This document shows positions 1 to 21,389 of a stretch of DNA of 64,000 nt, piece by piece (within the stretch, counting starts at the first letter, position 1; each line of letters starts with the position of its first letter). Where the stretch lies: assembly GCF_016406125.1 (NCBI RefSeq), contig NZ_CP066339.1, positions 2,480,001-2,544,000 on the forward strand, given 5' to 3'. The translations under genes and the position numbers were made by a program. This DNA comes from Alicyclobacillus sp. SO9 (lineage in GTDB: Bacteria > Bacillota > Bacilli > Alicyclobacillales > Alicyclobacillaceae). Below the pieces are notes generated by a model. It was not told where the DNA came from, searched no databases, and saw nothing but the letters and a program-made list of their open reading frames with translations.

Positions 1-9
1 GAAACCGGC

Positions 10-522
10 ATGACAATGAAAACCTACTTTGCCCCTGAAGATGACACGACGCAGGTGTTTGTTGATTTCCTCAAAACAGCGAAGCAAAGCATCCACGTTG
101 CCATCTTTGCATTTCACCTGCCCGCGGCTATGGATATTCTATTGCAGAAAAAGAAAGACGGGCTCGACGTACAGATGGTCATTGACCACCGAGAAGCGCA
201 TGGAACGTATGAGCATCCGGAGGTAGTGAAGCTTCGGGCGGCTGGTATACCTGTGATTGAAGGGACAAGCCAGAAGGACGAAATCATGCACCACAAGTTT
301 GCTGTGGTGGACGGCGAGTCTGTATTGGCAGGCAGTTGGAACTTCAGCGAGACAGCCAGCAAAGAGGACAACTACTTTGACATTGTGACTAACAAGGCGC
401 GCGCTCAACTGTTTCTGAAACACTGGCACAACATCAACCAATTTATGCGCACCCACGACCAACACGATAATCCCCAGTTGCAAAAGGAGGCTGATTCGAA
501 TGCAACCCATCAAAAAGGATGA
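10..522 (+). CDS. PLD-like nuclease, single HKD motif (5' end uncertain)
   Basis: The protein has one phospholipase D-type motif, H94-x-K96-x4-D101, followed by GSWNFS, which is the pattern of single-motif Nuc-type nucleases that work as dimers with a covalent phosphohistidine intermediate. The family cleaves phosphodiester bonds in DNA or phospholipids; the substrate here cannot be told. The frame is open to the window edge and neither ATG at 10 nor ATG at 16 has a visible ribosome binding site, so the true start and perhaps a signal peptide may lie to the left. Its end overlaps the lysozyme gene by 23 bases, suggesting translation from one mRNA in a phage-like lysis module. Confidence 0.8.
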   Translation: MTMKTYFAPEDDTTQVFVDFLKTAKQSIHVAIFAFHLPAAMDILLQKKKDGLDVQMVIDHREAHGTYEHPEVVKLRAAGIPVIEGTSQKDEIMHHKFAVVDGESVLAGSWNFSETASKEDNYFDIVTNKARAQLFLKHWHNINQFMRTHDQHDNPQLQKEADSNATHQKG

Positions 523-1642
523 TGCAAAAGGCATCGACGTTAGCCAGTGGCAAGGAGCCATCAATTGGCATGATGTCGCAGCAGACGGCATCGTATTTTC
601 CTACATCCGTGCTACCGAGGGCGTAGGTTTCACAGATCCCAAGTTTGGCCAGAACATGGCAAATGCAAAAGCGGCCGGCATCTTGGAAGGTGCTTATCAC
701 TATGCCACGCCGGATGTGTCTAATGATGCGGTGGCAGAAGCAAAGTATTTCTGTGATGTGGTAGAGAAGAATGGCGGATTTGGGGAGTTACGGCCTGCAC
801 TGGACCTGGAAACAGAGAGCGGTATGACACCCAAGCAACTGCAGCAATGGGTGAATGACTTCGGTAAATATGTGAAGTCACGCACAAACCGCGTTGGACT
901 CCTCTACATCTCTCCAAACTTTGATAAGTCTAAGCTGGCTAATCTCGCTGTTGATGAAGAGCTATGGAGCGCAGATTGGGGCGTGAAATCTCCGTCTGGC
1001 TACTCCAACTTTAACAAGTGGGAATTCTGGCAGCATAGCGATAAGGGTTCCGTCAAAGGCATCAGCGGCCGCGTAGACCTCGACGTGTTCAATGGCGATC
1101 TAGCAGCGTTGCGCACCTATTGCGGCCTGCCTCCCGAACCGCCTGCACCTGTACAGCCTGCTCCCCACAAAGCACCATCAGCCGCTCCTCCCGTGCATCA
1201 TGTGACCCATGTACAGCCGACCAAGGATAAATACCCTGAGTTGCGCTTAGAGCGGCCATACATGCACTCAGACGCTGTGAAGACGGTGCAGAAAGTGGTC
1301 AATGCGTGGCCGATAGATGGCGTGTATGGGCCTAAAACTACGAAGGCAGTTGAAGACTTTCAGGATCATCAGCACATCACTAAAGATGGCATCGTGGGAC
1401 CTCAAACATGGGGCCGTATCCATTATGTACAGCATCACATGAAGGAGATCATGATTGGTGCAGTTGGAGGTGAGGTGTTGCATCTACAACGAGTGCTCAC
1501 TTTCTATGATTGTTCACCGGGGCCGAAAGACGAAATCTTTGGCATTCACACCCGCGGCGCAGTTATTAAGTATCAACACTCACGTCATCTTCAAGTCGAT
1601 GGCATAGTTGGTCCTCAGACATGGGGATCGCTTTTGTCATAA
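500..1642 (+). CDS. GH25 lysozyme with two peptidoglycan-binding domains (endolysin)
   Basis: Residues about 9-210 form a glycosyl hydrolase family 25 (Chalaropsis-type) muramidase: GIDVSQWQG at the first strand, ATEG, and the catalytic LDLE (D102, E104). After a Pro/His-rich linker come two PG_binding_1 repeats (about 250-316 and 325-380), each ending in DGIVGPQTWG. It should cleave the MurNAc-GlcNAc bond of peptidoglycan. There is no signal peptide, as expected for an endolysin released through a holin. ATG 500 is preceded by AAGGAGG at 485-491. It sits between a PLD-type nuclease and a small membrane protein, consistent with the lysis end of a prophage or phage remnant. Confidence 0.92.
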   Translation: MQPIKKDDAKGIDVSQWQGAINWHDVAADGIVFSYIRATEGVGFTDPKFGQNMANAKAAGILEGAYHYATPDVSNDAVAEAKYFCDVVEKNGGFGELRPALDLETESGMTPKQLQQWVNDFGKYVKSRTNRVGLLYISPNFDKSKLANLAVDEELWSADWGVKSPSGYSNFNKWEFWQHSDKGSVKGISGRVDLDVFNGDLAALRTYCGLPPEPPAPVQPAPHKAPSAAPPVHHVTHVQPTKDKYPELRLERPYMHSDAVKTVQKVVNAWPIDGVYGPKTTKAVEDFQDHQHITKDGIVGPQTWGRIHYVQHHMKEIMIGAVGGEVLHLQRVLTFYDCSPGPKDEIFGIHTRGAVIKYQHSRHLQVDGIVGPQTWGSLLS

Positions 1643-1667
1643 AACCATCCACTAAGGAGGAATTGCA

Positions 1668-2249
1668 TTGAATCCAACATTCATTCACAACACCGAGGTC
1701 GTTGTCACCACTGTTGTCGCTGTATTAGGTGGGTCCTATGGCCTGCATAAACACTTTTTCAGCAAGCTAAAGTCTGATTTACCAGGGGTCATGAAGATTG
1801 GCGGCGACATTGTGAAAGCCGGGGAGGACATTCTTGGCGTACCGGGCATGGAAGGCGTCAAGGCAGCCATGGGCGTCGAGGTGCACCACGTAGAAAATGA
1901 GCTGCAGCATTCGCAAATTCTGCAGACAGTCGGTTCTGTGCTGCATGCATTTGGAAAGGATGTCTCGCAGCTGAGCCAGAACGAGAAGGGCGGCATTGTG
2001 ACTCTCGCATCCAGCGAGCTTCAGAAATTAGGGATCTCCGTCGATGCCAAGACCATTACTCATGCGATGGATGAGTTTCAAAAGGCGGCAGATGGAATTC
2101 GCAAGACAGGCGTCTTCACCAACTTGTCAGCGCTCGAGGATGCAATCAAGCAGCTGACGGCAACTCCACAGCAGAACGCGAAGGATGCAGCAACAACCAA
2201 AGAGCCCGCGGAGACAGCCAGCACGAAGTCGGCCGCTGCGAAAGGATAG
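1668..2249 (+). CDS. Unrecognised protein with one N-terminal membrane segment (holin position)
   Basis: A TTG start at 1668 follows a clean AAGGAGG at 1654-1660. Residues about 9-27 (around VVVTTVVAVLGGSYG) are a likely single membrane helix; the rest is amphipathic and helix-rich, ending in an Ala/Thr/Lys-rich tail. I do not recognise a family. Its place directly behind an endolysin gene and before a terminator suggests a holin-like or lysis-associated role, but that is inference from position only. It could equally be a phage structural or superinfection protein. Confidence 0.55.
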   Translation: MNPTFIHNTEVVVTTVVAVLGGSYGLHKHFFSKLKSDLPGVMKIGGDIVKAGEDILGVPGMEGVKAAMGVEVHHVENELQHSQILQTVGSVLHAFGKDVSQLSQNEKGGIVTLASSELQKLGISVDAKTITHAMDEFQKAADGIRKTGVFTNLSALEDAIKQLTATPQQNAKDAATTKEPAETASTKSAAAKG

Positions 2250-2304
2250 TGGATAAGTATTCGAATCAAGTAGTTTTACCAAATCCCCACCTTCTATAAG
2301 GTGA

Positions 2305-2337
2305 AGCCCTCGGCCCGATCGGTCGGGGGCTTTTTTT
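2305..2337 (+). terminator. Rho-independent terminator after the lysis module
   Basis: An 11-bp stem (AGCCCTCGGCC with GGTCGGGGGCT, including G-T pairs) with a short loop is followed by seven T. It ends the lysis-module transcript and separates it from cotE. Confidence 0.88.
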
Positions 2338-2382
2338 ATTGAATGCAACTAAAATTATTCCTAAAATTATTCGGGTTTTTGC

Positions 2383-2913
2383 TTGATTCACAGACCTTTT
2401 CTCAATCCAACGAAGCGCCGCAGAAGGTTGTTTTGCACTAGCATGGGCTCCCAGACCACGTATACTGTGCGCCCCGCAAATCGTCCCAGCACAATTGGGG
2501 GGTGCTGGGTCATGAATCATACCTATGACGCTGAATTGGTTGGTGATTATGTCGAGGTGCGGGGCAAGTTTACGATTCATGTATGGTATTCGTACAACAA
2601 CAATTCGGAAACGGCGGTTGCAACGGATACAGTCTCATATGTGGAACAAATCGCACTTCGAGACCTGGATACGGACTGTTTGCAAGATACCAGGACAGTA
2701 GAGGTCAGAAATCTTCAAAATCCCAATTGCCTTGATGCAACTGTGACCGGAAACGGATCGGAAATTCTGGTCAGAGTCGAAAAGGAACTTGGCGTAGAAC
2801 TGCTTGGGGAAACCAAGATGTGTGTTGTGACATGCGATCCAGTCGACAAGAAGGACGAAGAATTTCTCGATGACGACGAAAGTCTTCTCGAGGAAGTCGA
2901 GATTGAAGACTAG
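2383..2913 (+). CDS. cotE: Outer spore coat morphogenetic protein CotE
   Basis: CotE directs assembly of the outer spore coat in the mother cell. The match to Bacillus CotE is clear in the core: RPSTIGGCWVMNHTYDA, VWYSYNNNSET, NLQNPNCLDATV, and GETKMCVVTCDP followed by a very acidic tail (about 25 residues rich in D and E). Length (176) is close to the 181 of B. subtilis. The TTG start at 2383 gives the usual distance to the GCW motif, but its ribosome binding site is weak; ATG 2443 is an alternative that would remove the N-terminal 20 residues. In B. subtilis cotE lies just before mutS; here it is about 20 kb away from mutSL and instead precedes coat-associated ATP-grasp genes. Confidence 0.9.
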   Translation: MIHRPFLNPTKRRRRLFCTSMGSQTTYTVRPANRPSTIGGCWVMNHTYDAELVGDYVEVRGKFTIHVWYSYNNNSETAVATDTVSYVEQIALRDLDTDCLQDTRTVEVRNLQNPNCLDATVTGNGSEILVRVEKELGVELLGETKMCVVTCDPVDKKDEEFLDDDESLLEEVEIED

Positions 2914-2991
2914 GCTACTGGGTCCCAAAGTAATAAGTGTTGTGGGGCGTCTGTGAGCGCCCCATTTTTACTGTGCAAGAGGTGAGCTTTT

Positions 2992-4374
2992 GTGCTAATA
3001 CACGTTCAGAATGACCCTACTCTGCATGGTAACCTCGTAACTGTAGCTGATTTGCCGAGACAAGGTCAAGCTTTGCTCGAAAAAATCCTCTATGCCGGGA
3101 ATACAGCTTCGGTCGCAGAGGCAATGCGAATTGGGAAAGACTCTACGGTTGTATCAATTGCTGCATCTGGAAGCAGTGTACCGAGTCTGCGTTTGAGTCA
3201 GGAACTTCAAGAAAAGCTGCGCCTGCCGAACAGTATGACACTTCATTGTGTGCGAGACGGAGAGACATGGAGGATAGGTCCTTGTCTCGGAATTTATGTG
3301 AGTTCTTATAGAAATAGAAAACTTCGATTTGGCCCCCAGACGCGGCTGCTGAAAGACTTGGCTGTCGCAGCCGGTGAAATCGGAGTGGATGTAGTGGTCA
3401 TCGGGCCCGGATATATCAACACCAGACAAGGGTGGCGGTATAACGTATTTACCAGTAATTGGGAGGTATCGGAGGTCGCACATCCCGATGTTGTGTTACG
3501 GCGGTCTGGGGCATTTGAGCCTACGCAGGCAACATTGGTTAGAGCCGATTTGCAGAGTTTTGCCGCAGAAGGAATACTGCATACACTCCCTCGCTTCTAT
3601 ACGAACAAATGGATGATGCACAGACTCTTGTCTCAAAACTCCGATTTAGAGGGGTATCTCCTAAACACATACCTGGCACAAACCGCAGACGAGGTGTTCA
3701 GGCTGGCCTACAAACATTCCGATGTTTACGTGAAGCTGCTGACGGGTGCGCAAGGACACGGGATATACCATATTCGGCGCACCAACAATGGACTCAGAAT
3801 TGATTGGAACAGGTCGCCTTCTAAGAACGGAAAGACGATTGCGAAACAGCAACAGTTTTGTTTTGATTTGCAAGACTTTGTTGATTTTTGGAATGCAACA
3901 GGTGTTAAAAAATGTATTGTACAGGAGACATTCCCACTTCCTCTTACACGAGACGGATATCCGTTTGACTTGCGCTGGTTGATTCAGTTTACGGACCGTC
4001 CTGTGGTTACCGCCAGGATGGCACGTGTAGGTTTTGTTGATTCTGTCACGACCAATCTTCATACCGGCGGGAAACCTGTTGAAGCAAAGGACCTATTTCA
4101 AAGTTTGAAGTGGCAACGTTCCAATGCATTACTGTCTCGTTTAGATGAGGTCGCTGTCAGGGTTACGCAAACGTGTACGGAAAAATTTGGCCCGATTGCT
4201 GAATTGGGAGTGGACCTGGCCGTGAATGAGCGGGGAGACATAAGAATTTTCGAAATCAATTCTACGCCAGGTAGGCGAATGCTGAAGTTGGCAGCACCGA
4301 CTCTTCGTACGCTGTCACTTCACAACCTCCTTGAATATGCTATCAACGCAGCCGGATTTACCGGAGAGTCCTGA
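2992..4374 (+). CDS. YheC/YheD-family ATP-grasp, spore coat-associated (copy 1)
   Basis: This belongs to the YheC/YheD family, whose B. subtilis members are coat-associated and carry an ATP-grasp fold (carboxylate-amine or carboxylate-thiol ligases using acyl-phosphate intermediates). An N-terminal domain (about 1-190) is followed by an ATP-grasp domain with a glycine-rich ATP loop VKLLTGAQGHGIYHI (around 245-260), DLRWLIQF, and a metal-binding FEINSTPGRR near 420. GTG 2992 follows AGAGGTGA. The substrate is unknown. It starts a tight run of three ligase-like genes directly after cotE, which suggests modification of coat material in the mother cell; this is inference. Confidence 0.85.
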   Translation: MLIHVQNDPTLHGNLVTVADLPRQGQALLEKILYAGNTASVAEAMRIGKDSTVVSIAASGSSVPSLRLSQELQEKLRLPNSMTLHCVRDGETWRIGPCLGIYVSSYRNRKLRFGPQTRLLKDLAVAAGEIGVDVVVIGPGYINTRQGWRYNVFTSNWEVSEVAHPDVVLRRSGAFEPTQATLVRADLQSFAAEGILHTLPRFYTNKWMMHRLLSQNSDLEGYLLNTYLAQTADEVFRLAYKHSDVYVKLLTGAQGHGIYHIRRTNNGLRIDWNRSPSKNGKTIAKQQQFCFDLQDFVDFWNATGVKKCIVQETFPLPLTRDGYPFDLRWLIQFTDRPVVTARMARVGFVDSVTTNLHTGGKPVEAKDLFQSLKWQRSNALLSRLDEVAVRVTQTCTEKFGPIAELGVDLAVNERGDIRIFEINSTPGRRMLKLAAPTLRTLSLHNLLEYAINAAGFTGES

Positions 4375-4395
4375 AGCTCGAAAGGAGTCTTAAGG

Positions 4396-5805
4396 ATGGA
4401 GGGTGACAGTGAGTTCCAAATAAAAGTGGAACGCAATCCCGAGTCCTTCGTTCGGGTCCACTCAGACTTTCGTGCGATATTGCATCCATCGTCGCGAAAT
4501 CAAATTATGTATACACTGGGTCCTCATGAGGGGCATGTTCCAGTCCAGTACGATCCCGCTATGGACAGCGACACCGTGTATTTAAGCAGTGCTTTTGCAC
4601 ATCATCTGGGGATTCGCCGGTTTACGCAGGAACTGAGGGCAATTCTGAGAGAAGACCGCATGCAACTGGGACACTTCCTTGGAATTCTTTGCTCTCCTCG
4701 CTGGAATGAAAAGACTCAAACCATGAGGCCGACTAAACACCTGCCTGTTTTGCAGAAACTGCTAACCTTAGCGGACAGCGAAACAGGTGTTGCTTTTATC
4801 TTTGACATCCGTGATGTCAACTTTGCAGCCATGAAGGTAAAGGGGTATCGCTACATTAACCAACAGTGGGTTGTGGAGCAGTTCCCGCTTCCAAATGTGG
4901 TTTACGACCAAGTCATTTCAAGGAAACGCGAACGCGATACTGTTTATGCCAAGCGGCACAAGCGATTGGCCACGCTGTACCAAGACAAGTTATTTAATGC
5001 AGGTTTCCTTGACAAGTGGCAAGTATACAAGTGGTTGCAGGAAGACAAAAGGACAGAGAAATTTATTCCTGATACCGCTCGCTACACTACGGTGTCAGAA
5101 GCTGTGAAGTTCATTGGTAAGCATCCCGTGACATTTTGCAAACCAGTTCATGGAAGCTTGGGCTTAGGCATTTTTCGTATTGAACGACTTGTCGAAGGTG
5201 GGTACATGTATCAGATTCGACGCAGAACAGGAGCGCCTACGCAAAGTACGGCCCCGTCTGCTGTCGAAGCAGTCAACCAATTAAAGAAGAGGTTGGCAGC
5301 CAAACCGTATGTGCTGCAGCAGGGAATCACCTTGGCGCAGTGGGACGGTCGTCCCTTTGATATACGAATCGTCATGCAAAGAGATGAACAGGGAGAGTGG
5401 AAGCGCACAAAAATGTTTGCCAGATTGGCAGAAAAGGGACAAATCACCTCCAATTTAAGTACGGGTGGTGAAGCAGCATCTCTTGAATCCATTCTCAACC
5501 CTCTGTTTCACGAGAAGAGCAAACAACGCAGAGTCATCCAGATGGTACGCCGGATTTCAAGAATTGTTCCCGATGTCATGGAAGAGCAATCCTCGCGTAG
5601 ATATGGTGAGCTCGGAATCGACATCGGTCTCGATCCTCAAGGCGGAGTATGGATTATCGAGGTGAATTCGAAGCCCTGGAAAACGACATTGACCGAGAAA
5701 GGAAGACAAGATCTTGTGGATTTGGCATTCCTTCGTCCCGTACGATATGCCCGTTATCTTTCACGATTGACTGATTCAATTCAAACTCCCGGAAAGGAGT
5801 TGTAG
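4396..5805 (+). CDS. YheC/YheD-family ATP-grasp, spore coat-associated (copy 2)
   Basis: This is a second YheC/YheD protein, diverged from the preceding copy but with the same layout: N-terminal domain, FDKWQVYKWL-like family motif (as DKWQVYKWL) near 210, ATP loop FCKPVHGSLGLGIFRI near 246, FDIRIVMQ near 325, and the metal site IIEVNSKPWK near 421. All expected ATP-grasp residues look intact, so it is probably active. ATG 4396 follows AAAGGAG. It lies 21 bases behind copy 1 and 3 bases before the amidoligase fusion, so the three are almost certainly co-transcribed. Two ligases with different partners or successive steps are possible. Confidence 0.86.
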   Translation: MEGDSEFQIKVERNPESFVRVHSDFRAILHPSSRNQIMYTLGPHEGHVPVQYDPAMDSDTVYLSSAFAHHLGIRRFTQELRAILREDRMQLGHFLGILCSPRWNEKTQTMRPTKHLPVLQKLLTLADSETGVAFIFDIRDVNFAAMKVKGYRYINQQWVVEQFPLPNVVYDQVISRKRERDTVYAKRHKRLATLYQDKLFNAGFLDKWQVYKWLQEDKRTEKFIPDTARYTTVSEAVKFIGKHPVTFCKPVHGSLGLGIFRIERLVEGGYMYQIRRRTGAPTQSTAPSAVEAVNQLKKRLAAKPYVLQQGITLAQWDGRPFDIRIVMQRDEQGEWKRTKMFARLAEKGQITSNLSTGGEAASLESILNPLFHEKSKQRRVIQMVRRISRIVPDVMEEQSSRRYGELGIDIGLDPQGGVWIIEVNSKPWKTTLTEKGRQDLVDLAFLRPVRYARYLSRLTDSIQTPGKEL

Positions 5806-5808
5806 CAC

Positions 5809-7287
5809 GTGGCCTATTTTTTGCTGCATACGGGGCAACCGTCTGCAAAGAGGCTGATGCGTCAGGTCCCGCGCCTGCATACTTATCAATCCAGTTCAGG
5901 TATCGCTCAAATCGACACTGTAATACGATGGGGACTTTCAGACGAGAGCGACCCGCCAAACGGGCGCGTGTTAAATCCACGAGATGCAATTCTTCGAACA
6001 ACGTCTCGGGTGAAGATGGTGAAGTCACTGAGAAAACTGGGAATCCGGTGTGCGCCGCGGCAACAATTGAAAAACGGATTACTCGGCTTGACTCAACAGT
6101 TCCGCGTTCCCGTATTCGATATGCATCCCTTGTCTTGTTTTCGATCTGATGCAGCACCCGTTTGGATTAACCAGCGGATTCAACGTATTCAAGATAATTT
6201 TGAGGAAGTAAGCGTGTCAGAAGACCGATTAACACGGCGGGTTATACGTTTGTCTACTAGAACTCTGCACGCGCTCGGATTAGATTTTGGCCTGGTCAGT
6301 ATCGGAGTATCGGCAAGGGGATTATTGTACATTCTCGACGTCACGCCGCATCCTGTCCTTACTGGAAAAATGCTGCAGTTGTTTGGGAAGGCTGTCAGTG
6401 ATTTTGTGGAACGGACGGAGACTATGCTTGCTGATGCACCCCTTTCTGTCACGCTTGGGACAGACATGGAACTGATGCTTCGAAATCCGGTTGGAAAAAT
6501 GGTTTTGGCAAGTAATTATTTCACACGAAAGGGACGAGTCGGCTGTGACGACCGCAGTGTGCGAATGGACGGAAAAAGGCTTCCTCTGCTCGAACTTCGA
6601 CCGAATCCAGAAGACAATCCACTGCAGCTTGTGACAAATCTCCGCGATGCAATGGTGGAGGCGTCGTCTAAAATTAACCGGGCCAACGTGGAGTGGCGTG
6701 CGGGCAGCATGCCCTTCAAACCCTATTCAACGGGAGGTCACATTCATTTTTCCGGGGTGCAACTGTCCAGCCATTTAATTAAGGTTCTCGACCAATATCT
6801 AGCGATTCCGCTGATGTTGGTGGAAGCGACAGATACAGCAAGCCAACGCCGTCCGAAATATGGCTTCCTGGGCGACTTTCGGCAGAAGGAATGGGGCTTC
6901 GAGTATCGGACGCCAGCGAGCTTCATTGTCTCTAGGGAAGTGACTACCGCTGCGTATTGCCTAGCCTATGTGATAGCAGTTCATCACTTCGATTTACCGA
7001 CGATTGATATCTACGAGCCAGCAATTGAAGAAGCGTTTTACACGGGAGACTCCGCTGCGTTCATACCCATTATGCAAAGAAACGTAGCCGTGTTAAGAAG
7101 GCTGCGAACATATGAACGCTTTCAGCAATATATTGAACCGTTGTTCCTAATGTCAGAAGCGGGTACGACTTGGGATGAGGGCGTAGACGTTCGCACTGTA
7201 TGGGATATTCCACTGAAGCGCCCAGTTGCAAAAACAGCTGTAAGGCGCACAAGACAGCGCCGACAGAGAGCCCGCGCGACCGGATGA
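5809..7287 (+). CDS. Fusion of degenerate ATP-grasp lobe and phiEco32-type amidoligase
   Basis: Residues about 210-460 match the glutamine-synthetase-fold COOH-NH2 ligase type 2 family (phage phiEco32-like amidoligases): GTDMEL near 216, LLELRPNPEDNPLQL, STGGHIHFSG near 308, and GFEYRTPASF near 364. Such enzymes are predicted to join a carboxylate to an amine using ATP. Residues 1-205 resemble a reduced ATP-grasp C-terminal lobe (LGLDFGLVSIGV then ILDVTPHPV); the usual E-x-N metal pair is D-x-T here, so this half is probably non-catalytic. GTG 5809 lies 3 bases after the upstream stop, with GGAAAGGAG before it. The tail is very Arg-rich. Its placement suggests a coat-modifying peptide ligase; substrate unknown. 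Confidence 0.75.
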   Translation: MAYFLLHTGQPSAKRLMRQVPRLHTYQSSSGIAQIDTVIRWGLSDESDPPNGRVLNPRDAILRTTSRVKMVKSLRKLGIRCAPRQQLKNGLLGLTQQFRVPVFDMHPLSCFRSDAAPVWINQRIQRIQDNFEEVSVSEDRLTRRVIRLSTRTLHALGLDFGLVSIGVSARGLLYILDVTPHPVLTGKMLQLFGKAVSDFVERTETMLADAPLSVTLGTDMELMLRNPVGKMVLASNYFTRKGRVGCDDRSVRMDGKRLPLLELRPNPEDNPLQLVTNLRDAMVEASSKINRANVEWRAGSMPFKPYSTGGHIHFSGVQLSSHLIKVLDQYLAIPLMLVEATDTASQRRPKYGFLGDFRQKEWGFEYRTPASFIVSREVTTAAYCLAYVIAVHHFDLPTIDIYEPAIEEAFYTGDSAAFIPIMQRNVAVLRRLRTYERFQQYIEPLFLMSEAGTTWDEGVDVRTVWDIPLKRPVAKTAVRRTRQRRQRARATG

Positions 7288-7320
7288 CTGTGAACAGGCA
7301 GAAAACGGGGTGACAAGTGA

Positions 7321-7887
7321 ATGGCCGTTACGACAGAAGCAAAGTTGGTATGGTACAAATTTGGCGAGGGTCTGAAAATGGTCGTTAAAGTGGCGGAAGA
7401 ACCCTATCAGCGGTATGCCGCCAAAGGTATATCCACTGCTCGGATTGTGAACTTGAAGGTCCCCGTACTAAAACGGATTGGCAAGAACCCAGTTGTATAT
7501 TCTCAGCCAATCAACTTGGAGGAATCTGGTGACTCTCTGTATACCGAAAGTGTTTTTGCCGTTTTGACGGGGGTTAAGGGACAACGGATTGCCGGGAGTA
7601 AGACCGACTACCGGGACTTAGCCAGTACCGGGAAACAAACGGGTAAGTTCATTTATGTACTGCCTGTGACCAGTGTCACCGACGATGACGTATGGGTTGG
7701 TTATGTTCGAACTGGTCGTAAGCGTTGGATTGCCGTCCCTTGTCCACGCCCGTCTGCAGTCTATAACCGTATTTCGCTCCGGAACCTTGAACGAGCTCCA
7801 GTTTCAGTGGCTGCCCGTCAGAAAATTGAGGGTCTGGGAATTCCCATGTTCAACCCGGAGTATTTTGATAAGGCAAAGGTCTATTAA
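7321..7887 (+). CDS. Unknown basic protein, last gene of the coat ligase operon
   Basis: This 188-residue protein is not recognised. It is beta-strand-rich by appearance, Lys/Arg-rich, has no signal peptide or membrane segment, and contains an aromatic patch VWVGYVRTGRKRWIAVP near 125-141. ATG 7321 follows GGGGTGACAAGTG. It begins 33 bases after the amidoligase fusion, so it is probably in the same transcript and may be a substrate, scaffold or carrier for the ligases; there is no direct evidence. It ends 10 bases before the convergent serine recombinase gene, close to a possible element boundary. Confidence 0.7.
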   Translation: MAVTTEAKLVWYKFGEGLKMVVKVAEEPYQRYAAKGISTARIVNLKVPVLKRIGKNPVVYSQPINLEESGDSLYTESVFAVLTGVKGQRIAGSKTDYRDLASTGKQTGKFIYVLPVTSVTDDDVWVGYVRTGRKRWIAVPCPRPSAVYNRISLRNLERAPVSVAARQKIEGLGIPMFNPEYFDKAKVY

Positions 7888-7897
7888 CGGGTTGGTA

Positions 7898-9328
7898 CTA
7901 CAAGTCCATGTTCCATGTGAGTTCAATCCGATGGTCAGCATATACCAAAATCTCATGCACAGCGAGTTGAAGAACTTGGCGTCGTTCTTCTGCCGCCAAT
8001 TCCGGCCACGCGTCATGAATTAAGGTCATTGCTTCAAAGAACGGGTCATCGCTGGAACTGGCTTCCTCAGACTTTGGTGCCTGATTTATTTTATTGAAAA
8101 CTCTCAACCGCTCTGCCTCCAGTGCTTTGACTCGCGCATTTGCTCTTCCAGAATCTATGTCTCCGCGTTCGAAAGCTTCATACCATCTGTCTATTCGCTT
8201 ATCCAGTTCATTCAGACGTTCCTGTAGTTGATGGATTAGTTGCTGTTCCTCTGATTGTTGCTGTCCCTCTTTCTCTAACATCGTCTCCAACTCGTCCCGC
8301 TGAACACTCGCACGCTCCAGCAACTGTTGGATTACATAGGGCTCAATCGTCTCTGTTCTAATTTTGGGTAACGTACAGCGCTCTTCTCGTCCATGCTGCA
8401 AAAGTTGCTTGCGGGACATTTCTGAGTATTGACAGGCATAATACGTGTATTTATAGGGGCGGCTATCGTATGTCCGGTGATACATTTTGCCCCCGCAGTT
8501 TCCGCATCTCAGAATTCCTGACAGCAAGTGTTTACGCTGACTGGGCCGGGTTTCCCTTCGACGATCTCGCATTCTCTGCGCGCGTTCAAAGGTTTCTTGA
8601 CTGATTATAGCTTCGTGTGCATCTTCTTTACTGCTCATTCCCCACTTCATGTTACCTAGGTAAGTCTCTCGGTCCAAAAGTTGACGAACAGTGACAAAAC
8701 TCCATTTGCGTGAATCGTCATACGCGGACAGCCACTCTGCAATGTGACTCAAGGACAGGTGGTCCAGGTATTTGCGAAAGACTGCTCGTACGAGGCGTGC
8801 CTCAGTGTCATTCACAATGAGTTTCCCGGTTTGCGCATCATAGTCGTATCCAAAGGGCACGCGGCCCCCATGCCACATGCCTTTTTGAATTCGTTTACGC
8901 TGCCCTTCTTGCGTGCGCTCGGCTATTGTATCGCGTTCCAATTGTGCAAAGACGGCCAGTATACCTATCATGGCTTTTCCCAGAGGTGTGCCCGTGTCAA
9001 ACGGTTCTGTGGCGCTTTTAAACACCACGCCCTCTGGCATAAAAACATCTTCCAAGAGAAAGAGCACGTCTCGCTGTCGGCGACTTAAACGGTCGAGTCT
9101 ATATACGACTACGGTATCGATGGTTCCTTGTTCTATGTGTCTCAAAAGAGACTTGAGAGCGGGGCGCTCCAGACTTGTACCACTGTAGCCTTCGTCAACA
9201 TAAAGACGGTATTCATGCCACCCCTGGGACACGGCATAAGCGATGAGCCGCTCCTTTTGAGCGTCTATGGAATGTCCGTGTTGCGCTTGTTCATCCGTAC
9301 TAACCCGAGCATAGAGAGCAGCAGCCAT
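7898..9328 (-). CDS. Large serine recombinase (site-specific integrase/resolvase)
   Basis: The catalytic domain opens with ALYARVSTDEQ (nucleophile S10), continues with YRLDRLSRRQRD and ends near 150; a recombinase domain (about 165-270, GKMWHGGRVPFGYD region), a zinc ribbon beginning CGNCGGKMYHR and a coiled coil (about 375-430) follow. At 476 residues this is typical of phage and skin-element integrases such as SpoIVCA or TnpX. The start is set at ATG 9328 because AAGGAGG stands 5 bases upstream; the frame is open for 42 more codons but without a site. It may belong to the phage remnant at the left, to a separate island, or to a sporulation-controlled intervening element. Confidence 0.9.
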   Translation of the reverse strand: MAAALYARVSTDEQAQHGHSIDAQKERLIAYAVSQGWHEYRLYVDEGYSGTSLERPALKSLLRHIEQGTIDTVVVYRLDRLSRRQRDVLFLLEDVFMPEGVVFKSATEPFDTGTPLGKAMIGILAVFAQLERDTIAERTQEGQRKRIQKGMWHGGRVPFGYDYDAQTGKLIVNDTEARLVRAVFRKYLDHLSLSHIAEWLSAYDDSRKWSFVTVRQLLDRETYLGNMKWGMSSKEDAHEAIISQETFERAQRMRDRRRETRPSQRKHLLSGILRCGNCGGKMYHRTYDSRPYKYTYYACQYSEMSRKQLLQHGREERCTLPKIRTETIEPYVIQQLLERASVQRDELETMLEKEGQQQSEEQQLIHQLQERLNELDKRIDRWYEAFERGDIDSGRANARVKALEAERLRVFNKINQAPKSEEASSSDDPFFEAMTLIHDAWPELAAEERRQVLQLAVHEILVYADHRIELTWNMDL

Positions 9329-9692
9329 TGCGTTCCTCCTTGCTTGGCCCAAGGGACTGACTGGTTTTTGGGAAATGAGAGTCCTGCTGTGTGCCCTAAT
9401 ACAATTGCATATGCCGCAGGCGTGGCAAACAGAAGTACAGTTACAAGACGGCACTCATCTAAGATGGTACTCATCCATCTGGGTAATTATGGAATGTGAA
9501 CCGTTGCGGATAAGATTTTATAATACTTCTAGGGCGTGCATACTCTGTTCTTTCCCTGCTTGTTCTCTTCCCCAGACGTATGTGAATGTCATTTGTGCTG
9601 CGCTTTGAATGGATGTCGCAGGTTTAAATGAGGAGGTGTTTTGGTTCAAATAGCGTCAAAAGAGTAAATTTGCTTGAAGGGGAGGGGAGCAA
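9329..9692. other. Intergenic region between recombinase and HTH gene
   Basis: No convincing gene is seen in these 364 bases. They hold the upstream region of the recombinase on the minus strand and of the HTH gene on the plus strand. An attachment site could lie here or beyond the recombinase stop codon, but no clear core repeat was identified by eye. Confidence 0.4.
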
Positions 9693-9980
9693 ATGACACC
9701 GAGGGATTCTTCTATACCGGAAGCCAGAGACTATCCAATAACTTTAACGGTATCGGAAGTTGCAGAAATACTGAGGGTAGACCTGCATAAAGCATACAGT
9801 ATTGTCAGAGATCGAGATTTCCCAGTTATTACGCACGGAAGGCGAATGATTATTCCTCGAGATGCATTCTTTCGTTGGTTAGATGGCTGTGGTGAGGAAC
9901 GTCCAATGTATGACCGCAATCATGTCTTGGAGACGTTGGCCGACTTGGTTGCCGAACGATTAAATAAAAGGGGAACCTAG
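9693..9980 (+). CDS. Excisionase-like helix-turn-helix protein
   Basis: The 95-residue protein carries a MerR/excisionase-type HTH_17 domain: LTVSEVAEILRVDLHKAYSIVRDRDFPVI followed by GRRMIIPRDAFFRWL, the classic pattern of DNA-binding proteins that read 'helix, wing, arginine-rich strand'. ATG 9693 follows GGGGAGGGGAG. It lies next to a serine recombinase, so it may act as a recombination directionality factor or as a regulator of that element. It could alternatively be an independent transcription regulator. Confidence 0.72.
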   Translation: MTPRDSSIPEARDYPITLTVSEVAEILRVDLHKAYSIVRDRDFPVITHGRRMIIPRDAFFRWLDGCGEERPMYDRNHVLETLADLVAERLNKRGT

Positions 9981-9993
9981 TGATTCTCAAATC

Positions 9994-10024
9994 TTGATTT
10001 TTATCCCGTATTGTGTGATATGAT
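9994..10024 (+). promoter_or_regulatory. Probable sigma-A promoter of the riboswitch transcript
   Basis: TTGATT (9994-9999) and an extended minus-10, TGATATGAT (TATGAT at 10019-10024), stand 19 bases apart, about 20 bases before the riboswitch aptamer begins. Confidence 0.55.
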
Positions 10025-10047
10025 GTGTTCTAGTGGTATTTAAAAGA

Positions 10048-10128
10048 AAAGGCACCCCTTCGGAAACGAAGCGGACGCAAAGCTATAGGGGCTAACGTAG
10101 TCTATCTACTATGCCAGCCAGTTACCGT
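10048..10128 (+). promoter_or_regulatory. c-di-GMP-I (GEMM) riboswitch
   Basis: The region has the conserved GEMM-I elements in order: AAAGGCA, a first hairpin (CCTTCGGAAACGAAG region), GGACGCAAAGC, then a second stem (GCTAACGTAG to CTATGCCAGCC) and the closing GTTACCG. This class binds cyclic di-GMP. It lies 64 bases ahead of a gene encoding a c-di-GMP-related GGDEF-EAL-PilZ protein, so the ligand would control its own probable phosphodiesterase. Confidence 0.88.
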
Positions 10129-10142
10129 TTAGATGGATTATG

Positions 10143-10169
10143 ATAGGCATCCGTAAAACGGATGCCTAT
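10143..10169 (+). other. 12-bp perfect hairpin downstream of the riboswitch (expression platform?)
   Basis: ATAGGCATCCGT and its exact complement enclose a three-base loop, ending 23 bases before the start codon. There is no run of T after it (TTGTCAT), so it is a poor terminator on its face; it may still form the switching stem of the riboswitch or shield the mRNA. Confidence 0.6.
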
Positions 10170-10191
10170 TGTCATATAGGGGGAAAATTGC

Positions 10192-13086
10192 ATGATTCGG
10201 TTACGGAGGTCGCGGGGTCTCGAACAGAGACGGAGCAGGGATTCGGTGTTCTTACTGGGAGAATGGACTTTCGATATGCAGTCGGAAATTCTTACCTGTT
10301 CTGAGGACTGTCACAAGCTTTTTGCAATCCCAAACACAGCGTCTGTCGTACCGCAAACAATCATGCAGTCGGTACATCCAAATGATGAGGAATTGGTAAA
10401 GACCTGGTGGAAACTCGTAGGCGCGGGAAATTTTATCGATGGCATTACATTTCGAATCATCAACGACGGCGAGCGGTACCTGTATTCTGAACTGGACTAT
10501 AAAATCGGGGATGATGGTCAGATTGTATCGGTTTCGGGTAAGACCCGCGACGTGACGGACCTCATGACTGAAGACGAATTGTTACCGTCTACCGCGGACG
10601 TCGACAATGACTCAACGGATTCATATTCAAGTATACATATCGATCGCGATTTGCGGATTGTTAAGGTCAGTCCGATGGCCGAACAGCTCTTCGGCTGGAC
10701 TGAACAGGAACTGCGACTACAAATGCCAATTCAGCTCATTCCAGCGCTTCACTGGGAAGCCATGCAATCCATATATGAAACCGTTTTGGCGGACGGCGGT
10801 TTTATTCGAGTTGAAACCATGCGAATACATAAGAACGGCATCCCTGTACAAGTCGGGGTCACTTTATATCCAGTTCATGATTTGGAGGGAGGCATAACAG
10901 GTGTAGTGGCTCGTTACAGTAAATCTTTTGCAAATAACGAGTCCTCCACTGCGATGCTCTCTACGATGGAGAGGGGGCTGCAGGCTCTCGTTGAGAATTC
11001 TTTTGACGTTTGTATGATACTGTCCAAGGAATACGATATGAATTATGTTACGCATGCCATCACCAATGTCTTGGGCTATAGTGCACAAGAGTTCATCTCG
11101 TTAGGACTCGGTCATGTCATTCATCCTGAGGATGTAACAGGGTACCTGTCGGTATGTCATCAGGCGGTACACCAGGCCTCAAGCCAGCACACCTGTGTTG
11201 CACGTTTCAAACACAAAAATGGGGAATGGAGATACTGTTCCACGCGTATTCGCTATCTCACTGCGTTTTATAGTACAGAGGGCATTATTGTCAATTTCCA
11301 CGATGTAACAGAGAGTCGCAGGGCTGAAGAACTAATGAAGCACATGACATTCCATGACAGCTTAACTTCCTTGCCAAACCGGAAACATCTTGAGGAGCGC
11401 CTGCAGTTGTTGATTGGGATTCATAGACAGCGAGAGGAGAAACTAGCAGTTCTGCGTCTCGATATTAATCGCTTTAAGTACATAAACTCCAGTCTCGGCA
11501 GAACTACTGGAGACCACCTGATTCGCGATGTAGCGGACGCTTTGAGGCAGTTGGTGCCGACTGATTGTGTCGTGTCGCGAACAGGTGAGAACGAATTTTC
11601 CATGGTTGTACCCTATGTACACAATATGAGTGATGTCCTTCAGTTCGCAAGGCAAGTTGTCGACTCTTTTGATACCCCTTTTCAGATTGGCGATTATGCA
11701 TTAGCCATTACATGCAATGTAGGTATCAGTACATTTCCTGAAGACGGGGAGAATACTGAAGCTCTTTTGAAAACAGCAGACATGGCTTTACATGATGCAC
11801 AACTTCGGGGGGTAAACCAGATTGAACTATATTCCCAAAGTTTGGATGCCAAAGCTTATAAGGAATTCACACTCTCCAATGATTTCAAAAATGCCATAAA
11901 TGAAGAACAGTTTGTGATTTACTTTCAGCCGAGAGTAGCAGCGGACACGAGAAGCATTGTTGCGGCGGAAGCACTCATCCGTTGGCAACATCCTGAATGG
12001 GGACTTGTATCTCCTGGTGAGTTTCTGTACCTGGCAGAACAGACTGGGTCGATTGTGCTCATTGGTCAATGGGTCCTGCGGCAAGTCTGTCACCACCTGC
12101 AACAGTGGAAACAGCAAGGACAAAAGACACTCAAGGTTTCCGTCAATTTTAGCGCCCAACAACTCAAGGATCCGAATACCGTTGAGACCGTGAAAACAAT
12201 TTTACATGAATATGGCATTGAGCCCGCGCTCATCGAAATTGAGATCACAGAGACATCGATACTCCCAAACGACCCTGCAATTATTAACTCTATTAGAGTT
12301 CTCAGAAACATGGGCATTGGAATCTATTTTGATGACTTTGGTACCGGGTATTCATCGTTAAGTTGGCTTTACCAGTTCGAACTTGATGGAATTAAACTCG
12401 ATAAGATGTTTATGAGTCACATACCGGATAGTCCTGTACCTGCACAGATTGTTTCGTCTGTGATGAAACTTGCTCACAGCTTAAATCTGACCGTTGTTGC
12501 AGAGGGAATTGAGACAAATAAACAGTTGGAATTTCTCTCAAACCTTCAATGTGAAGAAATTCAAGGTTACCTTTTTAGCCGACCGCTTCCGGCAGAAGAG
12601 TTCACAAAGCTCTTGCAGCGTGGAGAGATAAGCGTGCGTACCGGGGATAACAGTGCGGGGATGGACAAAGAGCGCAGGAGATTTTTTAGAGTTGAACTGC
12701 AGTATCCTATAAAAGGGAAAATGACTGTTTCGAAAATAAAGTCGAAGCAACTCAATGTTGGGTATTCTCCTGTATTGGTGTATGACATTGGCCCTGGAGG
12801 ACTGCGTGTGCTGACTGACCTGAAGTTGCCCATTGGCGGAGACCTTGAACTGGAGTTCAAAGTGCAGGTGCTTGGAGAAGAACTGCAGCAAAGCGGTTAT
12901 GTCGTATGGAAGCAGGAGTATAGTCAGGAGTTGTTCCAGTATGGCGTCGAATTTGAAACAGACGAAACAGCACGAGAACGGCTTGTGCGTCTCTTTGATG
13001 AATTGGACAGAGTCACGCGGAGTGAACTGGATATACCCGGAACGCACTTCTATAGCGGCACAGTTGATACATTCTTTAAGAAATAG
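10192..13086 (+). CDS. PAS-PAS-PAS-GGDEF-EAL-PilZ protein, probable c-di-GMP phosphodiesterase
   Basis: Three PAS-like sensor segments (about 20-125, 135-240, 260-375) precede a GGDEF domain (about 385-545), an EAL domain (about 560-810) and a PilZ domain (about 825-950). The GGDEF signature is degraded to RTGENEF near 465, and the upstream RxxD inhibitory site is absent, so synthesis is unlikely. The EAL domain keeps EALIRW, VNFSAQQ, EIEITET, DDFGTGYSS, IKLDK, AEGIET and QGYLFSRP, so it should hydrolyse c-di-GMP to pGpG. PilZ shows the RRRFFR and DIGPGG motifs, giving an added c-di-GMP sensor. No membrane segments. ATG 10192 follows AGGGGGAAAA. Expression is probably set by the c-di-GMP riboswitch upstream. 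Confidence 0.92.
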   Translation: MIRLRRSRGLEQRRSRDSVFLLGEWTFDMQSEILTCSEDCHKLFAIPNTASVVPQTIMQSVHPNDEELVKTWWKLVGAGNFIDGITFRIINDGERYLYSELDYKIGDDGQIVSVSGKTRDVTDLMTEDELLPSTADVDNDSTDSYSSIHIDRDLRIVKVSPMAEQLFGWTEQELRLQMPIQLIPALHWEAMQSIYETVLADGGFIRVETMRIHKNGIPVQVGVTLYPVHDLEGGITGVVARYSKSFANNESSTAMLSTMERGLQALVENSFDVCMILSKEYDMNYVTHAITNVLGYSAQEFISLGLGHVIHPEDVTGYLSVCHQAVHQASSQHTCVARFKHKNGEWRYCSTRIRYLTAFYSTEGIIVNFHDVTESRRAEELMKHMTFHDSLTSLPNRKHLEERLQLLIGIHRQREEKLAVLRLDINRFKYINSSLGRTTGDHLIRDVADALRQLVPTDCVVSRTGENEFSMVVPYVHNMSDVLQFARQVVDSFDTPFQIGDYALAITCNVGISTFPEDGENTEALLKTADMALHDAQLRGVNQIELYSQSLDAKAYKEFTLSNDFKNAINEEQFVIYFQPRVAADTRSIVAAEALIRWQHPEWGLVSPGEFLYLAEQTGSIVLIGQWVLRQVCHHLQQWKQQGQKTLKVSVNFSAQQLKDPNTVETVKTILHEYGIEPALIEIEITETSILPNDPAIINSIRVLRNMGIGIYFDDFGTGYSSLSWLYQFELDGIKLDKMFMSHIPDSPVPAQIVSSVMKLAHSLNLTVVAEGIETNKQLEFLSNLQCEEIQGYLFSRPLPAEEFTKLLQRGEISVRTGDNSAGMDKERRRFFRVELQYPIKGKMTVSKIKSKQLNVGYSPVLVYDIGPGGLRVLTDLKLPIGGDLELEFKVQVLGEELQQSGYVVWKQEYSQELFQYGVEFETDETARERLVRLFDELDRVTRSELDIPGTHFYSGTVDTFFKK

Positions 13087-13198
13087 GTGGGAGCACAGGG
13101 CCTCGCCGTGCTCCTCAACTAAAACTTGCTTTGTCTTTCGGTTCCTATTCCCGAACAGACATGGTTACATAATTACATAAGCAGGTGAAGTCAAAAAA

Positions 13199-13480
13199 TC
13201 AATCGAAACTCCAAAAGTTTCGCAGAAATTCTGTCAACTCCGCATGAGCACCACTCCAGAAACCGTTCTTTAGCTCACCTACAAACAATCTGTCATCGAA
13301 GCCTATGTGGTTTGCAATCGATTCGTAAACGGAGCCTGCCTCAAGTTCCGTGACAATCAACCAGGTTGATTTATGAAGTTCAAAGGCGTGGGGGTACTGC
13401 CTGAAAGCATTGACCAGCTCGTCATAGTTTTCCTGAGGCTTGTCAAAGAGCTCGAACGTTGCAACGAGAAGGTTCATCAT
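13199..13480 (-). CDS. Small Cas2-like ferredoxin-fold protein, orphan
   Basis: The 93-residue protein begins MNLLVATFEL, the first strand of the Cas2-like / VapD-like fold, and continues with YPHAFELHKSTWLIVTEL and DDRLFVGEL, a pattern seen in small standalone Cas2-related proteins (some annotated as SinR family). No cas1 or CRISPR array is in the window, so adaptation in CRISPR is unlikely; these orphans may be RNases or nucleotide-binding regulators, role unproven. AAGGAG stands just upstream; ATG 13480 or 13477 could start it. It ends about 110 bases beyond the convergent EAL gene. Confidence 0.6.
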   Translation of the reverse strand: MMNLLVATFELFDKPQENYDELVNAFRQYPHAFELHKSTWLIVTELEAGSVYESIANHIGFDDRLFVGELKNGFWSGAHAELTEFLRNFWSFD

Positions 13481-13585
13481 TTTCTCCTTCCAGCTTTATG
13501 CTCCATCACTAGATTATATGGAAGAGTCAGGGACTGTGCAACTGACCAAGCCATGGCCTCATACATTGAAACAGGGGGTGATGGC

Positions 13586-13711
13586 ATGGCTGAGGCAAAG
13601 TCGAAAACCGTTGTTCTGAGCCATGAAGCAAGCCGGCAGATCATTGCTATTTGTCTGAGGGCGATCCGACGCAGACAAGAACGAGACGATGCTGAGCAGT
13701 CAACGCAGTGA
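13586..13711 (+). CDS. Possible small basic protein, 41 residues
   Basis: ATG 13586 follows AGGGGGTGAT at good spacing. The peptide is charged, with HEASRQIIAICLRAIRRRQER forming a likely amphipathic helix; the family is unknown. It lies between two minus-strand genes and its last 12 bases overlap the end of the GerAB gene. The strong ribosome binding site is the main support. Confidence 0.4.
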   Translation: MAEAKSKTVVLSHEASRQIIAICLRAIRRRQERDDAEQSTQ

Positions 13712-14818: not shown

Positions 14819-14820
14819 GG

Positions 14821-17597: not shown

Positions 17598-17841
17598 AAG
17601 CATCTCCCACATAGCAGGCTAGGTACTTGTCAAAAATGGTTGGCGTCTACAGCAATTCAGAGGTGTACTTAATGTACCCGCATTAAGCTGTTTCAATTAC
17701 TGAATGGTGACTGAATTACCAAATGACGTAATCTGAGATGCAGGATTGGCAAGGGGACCTGCGATCCGCAGTGAAAGGCCGTGACGTGAGCGGTGTTTTC
17801 GAAATAAGGATAAAGAAACGGCCTGACGGGGAGGGGAAGTT

Positions 17842-18273
17842 GTGGCAAATTCGAAGCAGCGAAAGCATTCTTCCCGGCACGGACTTGTCGCACTGCAATA
17901 CTCCATTGATTTTGTCATGGCAATTCTACTGCTGACAGGACGCATCACGACATCTGGAATTTTTGTTGTGCCTGAGGGCTTCTTTTTAGGGGCAACGGGT
18001 CCCATTTTTGGGGGTGATTTGTTTGAGGGAACGTCCGAGGAAATGTCGTTGAGCCTGCGCGCTGTCAACGTCATTACGGCCGTCTTGCTGATTCTGAATG
18101 TGATACGGGTCACGGGCACGTATGTGACGAGCGGTCGCCAAATTGTTGTGTTCAGCGGTGAGATCTTTGGCATCAAGGATATTGCTGGAGTAGTCAGTGC
18201 AGATGAAATGAAACGAGATTTGGCTTTTGATATAAGACAATATGTACGTGCTCAGTTACTCCGTGAACGCTGA
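17842..18273 (+). CDS. Unknown membrane protein beside germination genes
   Basis: Not recognised. A GTG start at 17842 follows GGGGAGGGGAAG. The 143-residue protein has two hydrophobic stretches (about 22-38 and 76-95), a Gly-rich loop between them (TGPIFGGDLFEG) and a charged C-terminal helix. It is divergent from the gerA operon and followed by another small membrane ORF, so it may be a germination accessory protein; this rests on position only. Confidence 0.6.
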   Translation: MANSKQRKHSSRHGLVALQYSIDFVMAILLLTGRITTSGIFVVPEGFFLGATGPIFGGDLFEGTSEEMSLSLRAVNVITAVLLILNVIRVTGTYVTSGRQIVVFSGEIFGIKDIAGVVSADEMKRDLAFDIRQYVRAQLLRER

Positions 18274-18305
18274 CAACTACATGTATCGAAGGATGTGAGT
18301 GTCAA

Positions 18306-18449: not shown

Positions 18450-18497
18450 CCAAGGCCTCATTGATGACTCATATTGTAAGCGTCGTGTTCGCAACCT

Positions 18498-21344: not shown

Positions 21345-21389
21345 CCTTGATTGTACTTGATCCAAGATTGTAGGGAAGCAAAAAGTTCG

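What the first reader, a model, noticed from the sequence alone, without database searches (positions are those of the whole stretch)
2383..7887. Candidate undescribed spore-coat amide-ligation system: cotE, two ATP-grasp ligases, an amidoligase fusion and an unknown partner
Seen: cotE is followed by five-gene continuity (gaps of 78, 21, 3 and 33 bases) of two YheC/YheD ATP-grasp proteins with intact ATP and metal motifs, a glutamine-synthetase-fold amidoligase, and a basic unknown protein. Known: ATP-grasp and COOH-NH2 ligases both form amide bonds from carboxylates. Inference: the set builds or attaches a peptide-like or poly-amino-acid modification in the coat; the acidic CotE tail and the basic 188-residue protein are possible substrates.
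Basis: partly seen in the sequence, partly recalled or inferred. Interest (0 to 1): 0.82.

Follow-up and report, generated by a model that had tools for sequence, protein, structure and literature searches.

The report
Mobile elements split spore-coat genes
A bacterium's spore-coat gene operon is cut in two places by DNA elements that look removable, one of them a complete-looking virus genome, so the bacterium probably has to cut them out before it can build its spore coat.

Summary
The cotE ORF is only the 3' piece. Its promoter, ribosome site and first 26 codons lie 49.9 kb upstream, at the far end of a prophage with a serine integrase; joining at a shared CTC gives a 179-codon cotE. The "unknown 188-residue partner" is the 5' piece of a third YheC/D ATP-grasp gene. 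Its 3' piece lies at 21.4 kb, beyond a 13.56-kb recombinase element, with an 11-bp repeat at both junctions; joining gives 441 codons. The coat operon is thus interrupted twice, by skin-type intervening elements. cotE is also split in nine other genomes at two other positions (codon ~78 in five of another family, ~147 in four of the same family), always rejoining in frame. Where dN/dS could be computed, both halves show low values; for this genome it could not. I found no report of cotE as such a target in the papers searched. Excision in the mother cell is inferred, not shown. The amide-ligation idea is plausible and well linked, but probably predicted before and untested.

The parts
1..2450 (.). 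right end of a 49,902-bp prophage (whole element G000:C1:2432549-2482450), inserted in cotE after codon 26
10..522 (+). phospholipase-D-like protein of the prophage's right end
   Evidence: PLDc_2 1.1e-16
500..1642 (+). phage endolysin-like protein: GH25 plus two peptidoglycan-binding stretches
2448..2450 (.). CTC shared by both prophage ends (right copy); the left copy is G000:C1:2432546-2432548; the inverted repeats are centred on its CT
   Evidence: joined ORF in frame; attP symmetric at 18 of 25 positions, best of three centres tried
2451..2913 (+). 3' piece of cotE; the 5' piece (RBS, codons 1-26) is outside the window at G000:C1:2432472-2432548
   Evidence: the other 40 of 41 family genomes match the cotE model from position 1 or 2
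2942..2965 (+). terminator-like hairpin between cotE and the first ATP-grasp gene
   Evidence: 7 such sites in the scanned region, 5.3 in shuffles
2992..4374 (+). YheC/D-like ATP-grasp protein 1 (YheC1)
   Evidence: PF14398 1.6e-45; E-x-N motif
4396..5805 (+). YheC/D-like ATP-grasp protein 2 (YheC2)
   Evidence: PF14398 3.1e-76; E-x-N motif
5809..7287 (+). amidoligase: residues 1-205 RimK-like ATP-grasp fold without the Asn of the metal motif, residues 211-466 YbdK/PafA/GCS-like ligase fold
   Evidence: PF14395 5.2e-95; model pLDDT 90.3; structure matches; no Asn in 28 of 28 rows
7321..7887 (+).
   Evidence: hits 26 of 26 YheC3 relatives of 400-480 aa; the eight alignments printed cover their N-terminal ~190 residues
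7864..7874 (.). 11-bp direct repeat TTTGATAAGGC, left end of element 2
7864..21425 (.). element 2: 13,562-bp intervening element inside the yheC3 gene, no phage structural gene recognised
7898..9454 (-). serine recombinase of element 2 (Rec2)
   Evidence: Resolvase 1.3e-40, Recombinase, Zn_ribbon_recom; XisF model 3.8e-45, below its cut-off
9693..9980 (+). excisionase-like HTH protein of element 2
   Evidence: HTH_17 5e-11; excise model 28.4 bits against a cut-off of 28.8
10192..13086 (+). cargo: long multidomain protein, read by eye as GGDEF/EAL-type
   Evidence: sequence only; no family search was run on it
13700..17612 (-). cargo: GerAB-, GerAC- and GerAA-type germination receptor genes
18498..19634 (-). 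cargo: second GerAB-type spore permease
19860..21344 (+). cargo: methyltransferase-domain protein
21426..21436 (.). 11-bp direct repeat TTTGATAAGGC, right end of element 2
21437..22208 (+). 3' piece of yheC3 (ATP-grasp domain)
   Evidence: PF14398 5.3e-58 for the ORF 21351-22208; joined ORF 441 codons

Best explanation
This is a conserved spore-coat operon (cotE, three YheC/D ATP-grasp genes and a PF14395 amidoligase) that two site-specific mobile elements have cut. A 49.9-kb siphophage-like prophage sits after codon 26 of cotE, and a 13.56-kb recombinase element carrying germination-receptor genes sits inside the third ATP-grasp gene. Shown from sequence: both genes exist as two in-frame pieces that rejoin at a short shared sequence; each element has a serine recombinase next to a junction; cotE is split in nine other genomes. 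Inferred: as with skin, SP-beta and vfbin, the elements are excised in the mother cell during sporulation. That restores both genes and reconnects the operon to its conserved sporulation-type promoter, while the forespore keeps the elements. The restored enzymes would then add amino acids or peptides to a coat component; the acidic CotE C-terminus is a candidate only.
For: cotE 5' piece with RBS at G000:C1:2432472-2432548 and 3' piece from 2482451; joined ORF 179 codons without a stop. attP halves symmetric at 18 of 25 positions (best of three centres) against a mean of 6.2 for one centre at random places. Prophage proteins: both terminase subunits, portal, head maturation protease, tape measure, a repressor and a phrog_95 integrase. 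The 40 other family genomes have cotE from model position 1 or 2. Both yheC3 pieces hit 26 of 26 relatives' YheC3, with an 11-bp repeat at both junctions. In relatives' maps a YheC gene directly follows the amidoligase. cotE is also split at codon ~78 in 5 genomes and after codon 147 in 4, each rejoining to a CotE like that of intact relatives. Low dN/dS in both halves where computable. Motif CACC-N16-CATAC upstream of cotE in 18 of 27 rows against 0.125 expected; it stays with the 5' piece.
Against: No excision was observed and no sporulation data exist here. A promoter scan upstream of both recombinases found nothing above shuffles. attP symmetry of element 2 is not significant (12 of 25, null P about 0.17). 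No directionality factor was identified for the prophage. Both insertions in this genome could be recent and simply inactivating: dN/dS for this genome's cotE could not be computed in any of 6 pairs, because synonymous sites are saturated (pN 0.12-0.14, pS 0.77-0.82), and the other values mix time before and after insertion. The promoter pattern was written after seeing the sequences. The integrase query found no relative in viral contigs.
Confidence: 0.8

Rival explanations
1. Ordinary lysogeny with gene loss: the prophage and element 2 simply inactivated cotE and yheC3, excision is not tied to sporulation, and the strain makes a poorer coat.
For: Only genome held of its genus; no sporulation-type promoter found at either recombinase; the insertions may be recent, and selection on this genome's cotE could not be measured.
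Against: Both pieces of both genes are open and rejoin in frame. Splits recur at three cotE positions in two families, and in the split pair G106-G146 dN/dS is 0.114 for the 5' half and 0.115 for the 3' half.
Confidence: 0.15
2. The prophage end supplies a new start, so the 3' ORF (from 2383, 2443 or 2512) makes a working N-terminally altered CotE without excision, as the first reader's ORF implies.
For: The ORF is open from TTG 2383; a sigma-70-like site lies at 2339-2367.
Against: That scan found 6 such sites where shuffles give 6.3. The N-terminal part of CotE, present in the 40 other family genomes, would be missing, and the conserved promoter motif and RBS lie at the other end. It would not explain yheC3.
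Confidence: 0.07
3. One reading: a coat amide-ligation system whose substrates are the CotE tail and the 188-residue basic protein.
For: Broad linkage of PF14395 to cotE; ligase fold like YbdK, PafA and GCS; CotE ends in EEVEIED or close to it in most own-family rows, though not in family f2.
Against: The 188-residue protein is a fragment of an enzyme gene, not a substrate. No substrate evidence. The RimK-like domain of the amidoligase lacks the metal-binding Asn in 28 of 28 rows.
Confidence: 0.35

Closest known systems
skin element in sigK (B. subtilis, C. difficile) and Alicyclobacillus phage MMB025 in sigK (PMC13141910, passages seen; PMC5025042, passages seen)
   Same: Phage-type element splits a sporulation gene; very short core (TCTC in MMB025, five nucleotides in skin); inverted repeats; MMB025 is from Alicyclobacillus, the genus of two genomes of this family.
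   Different: Target is cotE, not sigK; here a second element splits another gene of the same operon.
SP-beta in spsM (PMC4191935, passages seen); vfbin in spoVFB and vrin in spoVR (named there)
   Same: Prophage-type element inside a sporulation gene that is restored by precise excision.
   Different: Different gene; excision here not demonstrated.
gin in gerE (PMC5595907, passages seen)
   Same: Element without phage genes but with serine recombinase; like element 2 and the codon-78 cotE elements.
   Different: Different gene; gin has three recombinases. Element 2 carries germination-receptor genes and one codon-78 element carries CRISPR-Cas.
yin in yabG (PMC10747680, passages seen)
   Same: Prophage-like element in a gene of spore-coat assembly.
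   Different: yabG encodes a coat protease; cotE encodes a structural outer-coat protein.
PF14395 / PF14398 amide-ligase neighbourhoods (Iyer et al. 2009, recalled; seen only as a citation)
   Same: COOH-NH2 ligase with ATP-grasp ligases, as recalled next to CotE.
   Different: Here the gene set is mapped across the class and found interrupted.

Membership tests
sporulation-gene intervening element (skin type) | element splits one gene into in-frame 5' and 3' pieces at its two ends | tested here: met
   cotE and yheC3
sporulation-gene intervening element (skin type) | element encodes its own site-specific serine recombinase near one end | tested here: met
   phrog_95 integrase 7.3e-137; Rec2 Resolvase and Recombinase domains
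sporulation-gene intervening element (skin type) | short core with inverted repeats in the attachment sites | tested here: met
   prophage: core CTC, attP 18 of 25. For element 2 there is an 11-bp repeat but symmetry is inconclusive
sporulation-gene intervening element (skin type) | interrupted gene is a sporulation gene | tested here: met
   CotE family; motif CACC-N16-CATAC upstream. For yheC3 by operon membership only
sporulation-gene intervening element (skin type) | precise excision in the mother cell during sporulation | not testable with these tools
   needs DNA or RNA of sporulating cells
sporulation-gene intervening element (skin type) | recombinase or directionality factor under sporulation control | tested here: inconclusive
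   simple sigma-E/sigma-K scans no better than shuffles
complete temperate siphophage prophage | packaging, head, tail, lysis, repressor and integrase genes present | tested here: met
   (ten proteins given to PHROGs, not the whole gene set; the likely capsid matched only a family of unknown function)
complete temperate siphophage prophage | forms infectious particles | not testable with these tools
   needs induction and plating
cotE-linked PF14395/YheC-D operon | PF14395 gene near cotE | tested here: met
   85 of 86 compared outside the order
cotE-linked PF14395/YheC-D operon | enzymes modify a coat component by amide ligation | not testable with these tools
   fold only

The most novel reading that the evidence does not exclude
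cotE, an outer-coat gene, is a recurrent docking gene for excisable elements in Bacilli. At least three attachment positions in two families are used by prophage, minimal recombinase and CRISPR-Cas-carrying elements. In this genome coat assembly is gated by excision of two independent elements from one operon.
Probability: 0.6. Interest if true: 0.82.

Novelty: new variant of a known kind. Interest (0 to 1): 0.74.

Why it matters
Gene-splitting elements restored at sporulation are known for a handful of genes; those named in the passages I saw are sigK, spoVFB, spoVR, spsM, gerE and yabG. Finding cotE split in ten genomes at three positions, plus a second split gene in the same operon, would make the coat operon a hot spot. 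It would also show mobile DNA with useful cargo (germination receptors, CRISPR-Cas) settling where mother-cell excision makes it harmless. The restored operon, with a ligase gene beside cotE across much of the class, gives a concrete test of what PF14395 does.

Tried and rejected
The 188-aa protein as a novel partner or substrate: rejected, it is part of yheC3. Five-gene uninterrupted unit: rejected. A yheC3 split by an element in G035: rejected, the two frames overlap, so a frameshift in a 62%-complete assembly. G124 with two CotE matches: both in one open frame of 191 aa, not split. cotE element in G139: none seen. Sigma-E/K promoters at the recombinases: no signal. attP symmetry for element 2: not significant. 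In one search the word look-ups for G004, G014 and G106 landed on wrong copies, so those rows are not used; G120 gave 15 of 25. The longest-core joining gave wrong joins for several genomes. I use for the codon-78 genomes and for the codon-147 genomes (G120 and G014 were also right). dN/dS could not be computed, because of saturation, for the 3' half in 8 of 21 f12 pairs and in 11 of 21 own-family pairs, among them all 6 with this genome. Viral-contig search with the integrase: none. Named phages with related integrases reach 40.4% at best among the 15 rows listed of 1648 records; the 15 terminase relatives listed, of 2516 records, reach 48.2%. The integrase paralogue at G000:C1:1626681-1628084 was inspected, but no second gene piece was identified. 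Rec2 relatives in 38 of 41 family genomes were listed but their surroundings not examined.
Full report
What is in the window. The window is G000:C1:2480001-2544000 of a 5.29-Mb genome in two contigs.

cotE is split. The CotE model has one match in this genome and it starts at position 18, whereas in the other 40 of 41 family genomes it starts at position 1 or 2. Upstream lie a lysin, a PLD protein and some 50 kb of phage genes, back to a serine integrase at 2432569-2433966. Just beyond that integrase, preceded by a clear ribosome site, lies MVLSNKDLSYREIMANAVCGKGSKYS followed by five further residues and a stop. Joining at the shared CTC removes 49,902 bp and gives a 179-codon CotE. In the circular form the two phage ends are inverted repeats at 18 of 25 positions around the CT of that core, the best of three centres tried; random places in the same region average 6.2 at one centre, and 0.035% reach 15. 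Of ten proteins given to PHROGs, matches include small and large terminase, portal, head maturation protease, tape measure and a repressor. By sequence the prophage looks complete. The nearest listed phage integrases (Paenibacillus Riker and Likha, Anoxybacillus A403, Geobacillus E2) reach at most 40.4%.

The third ATP-grasp gene is split too. I mapped 40 of the 58 other genomes of the order: 27 of the own family's 40 and 13 of family f2. The order is cotE, YheC1, YheC2, amidoligase, one YheC (two in f2), then miaB. In the printed maps the CotE label is missing only in L101, where one search places cotE. The YheC2 label is missing only in L068. A YheC follows the amidoligase in 40 of 40, preceded in L105 by a frameshifted N-terminal part. 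miaB is labelled in 37 of 40; L078, L090 and L093 lack it. In four maps an element sits between cotE and YheC1 (below). In this genome the amidoligase is followed instead by the 188-aa ORF and 13.6 kb of other genes. The 188-aa ORF hits 26 of 26 YheC3-labelled relatives of 400-480 aa; the eight alignments printed cover all or nearly all of it and their N-terminal ~190 residues. The ATP-grasp fragment at 21351-22208 hits the same 26, aligning from about residue 177 onward in most of the eight printed. An 11-bp repeat TTTGATAAGGC marks both junctions. Joining gives 441 codons without a stop. The insert carries a serine recombinase beside its left end, an excisionase-like HTH protein, GerA-type germination receptor genes and a methyltransferase.

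Other split cotE genes. In the class sample 269 of 398 genomes have CotE (the table of places is cut, so splits near the end of the gene would be missed). Sixteen genomes with two matches, weak matches or short matches were looked at again. Five of family f12 (G106, G120, G146, G156, G225; one search lists 11 f12 genomes with CotE) have codons 1-78 and the rest apart: 10.9 kb in G106, 4.0 kb in G120, about 17 kb in G146, on different contigs in G156 and G225. All five rejoin to 184 residues with the NNNTETTVLK stretch of two intact sisters, apart from NRNT in G225. Each has a recombinase 29-31% identical to Rec2. The G146 element carries Cas1, Cas4, Cas3, Cas7, a Cas6 match just below its cut-off, and a CRISPR array. 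In the own family G004, G007, G008 and G014 have 2.9-5.0-kb elements after codon 147; the joined genes have 178 or 179 codons, intact relatives 178. Their integrases are 41-42% identical to the prophage's. The G007 element carries a histidine kinase, with a similar ORF in G008 seen by eye, and that of G004 a signal peptidase. So, by the model ranges, five of 41 family genomes, and five f12 genomes, have split cotE, at three positions.

Selection. Where it could be computed, dN/dS lies between 0 and 0.17 for both halves, similar to intact pairs. For G106-G146, both split, it is 0.114 and 0.115. Limits: saturation left 8 of 21 f12 pairs (3' half) and 11 of 21 own-family pairs without a value, among them all six pairs with this genome (pN 0.12-0.14, pS 0.77-0.82). 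G120 (split) and G206 (intact) are close, so some insertions are recent and the values mix time before and after insertion.

What the split does. After seeing the upstream sequences I counted CACC-N12..20-CATAC, which resembles recalled sigma-E/sigma-K sites. It is present in 18 of 27 own-family rows, this genome included, with a spacing of 16, against 0.125 in shuffles (G033 gave no row). It stays with the 5' piece, so the prophage parts not only codons 27-179 but probably the whole coat operon from its promoter. A terminator-like hairpin after cotE leaves open how much of the operon is read from it. By the precedent of skin, SP-beta, vfbin, gin and yin the likely course is excision in the mother cell only, with the forespore keeping the elements. 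That step is inferred; promoter scans at the recombinases gave no support.

What the operon does. PF14395 occurs in 57 of 59 order genomes and 203 of 398 class genomes. Of 86 genomes outside the order for which I found both coordinates in the cut listings, 85 have the two matches within 3 kb. G190 is the exception, with the two 484 kb apart on one contig; G106 and G120 were left out there because one coordinate was not listed, but searches show them adjacent. PF14395 rang in none of the 14 control genomes, B. subtilis among them. The protein is a two-domain fusion (model pLDDT 90.3, pTM 0.90). Residues 1-205 resemble RimK (Z 16.4), ArgX (15.8) and LysX (14.5). Residues 211-466 resemble YbdK (16.5; 16.7 for the Salmonella entry 1tt4), PafA (15.6), Dop (15.2) and glutamate-cysteine ligases (14.9 and below). 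The first domain has no Asn at the metal-motif position in 28 of 28 rows, so it is probably a binding domain. Linked ligases often act in succession (statement in PMC4431377, passage seen). A modification of CotE or another coat component, RimK- or Pup-ligase-like, is therefore reasonable but untested.

Novelty. Six phrases such as 'cotE-intervening' or 'inserted in cotE' gave no paper. Searches combining cotE, prophage, intervening element and sporulation or similar words listed papers of which I saw passages for seven (that came). Those on intervening elements concern other genes, and PMC5025042 mentions cotE only as a sigma-K target. The other listings were not opened. The library holds only open-licence papers, so an unheld report cannot be excluded.

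Noticed in passing
L132:3283-14300 (G146): CRISPR-Cas genes (Cas1, Cas4, Cas3, Cas7, weak Cas6) and an array with 33 repeat copies in one listed family sit inside a cotE-splitting element, so immunity genes would be lost from the mother cell on excision.
   Followed up: partly
G000:C1:1626681-1628084 (L173): Close paralogue of the cotE prophage integrase next to a truncated-looking 137-aa ORF, at the edge of a region with sugar-transport-like genes; possibly another gene-splitting element.
   Followed up: partly
window 13700-19634: GerA-type germination receptor genes as cargo of element 2; not labelled at this place in the 40 mapped relatives.
   Followed up: partly
G000 whole genome: 15 PF07508 serine recombinase matches, three of them in near-identical surroundings (4057935, 4496357, 5059443).
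   Followed up: no
window 5809-6450: The amidoligase N-terminal domain has an ATP-grasp fold without the metal-binding Asn in all 28 aligned rows: probably a non-catalytic ATP-grasp.
   Followed up: partly
L105:2061-3463 (G035): yheC3 read in two overlapping frames, likely a frameshift in an incomplete assembly.
   Followed up: yes
G190:C6: The one compared genome in which PF14395 lies far from cotE (about 484 kb).
   Followed up: no
window 1668-2249: 193-aa protein between the phage lysin and the prophage end, no PHROGs match up to E 0.01 and only sub-threshold Pfam matches.
   Followed up: no
L130, L131, L132, L135, L137, L138, L139, L140: In f12 and in G139 of f20 the amidoligase follows cotE directly, with no ATP-grasp gene between them, and mutS follows.
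   Followed up: yes
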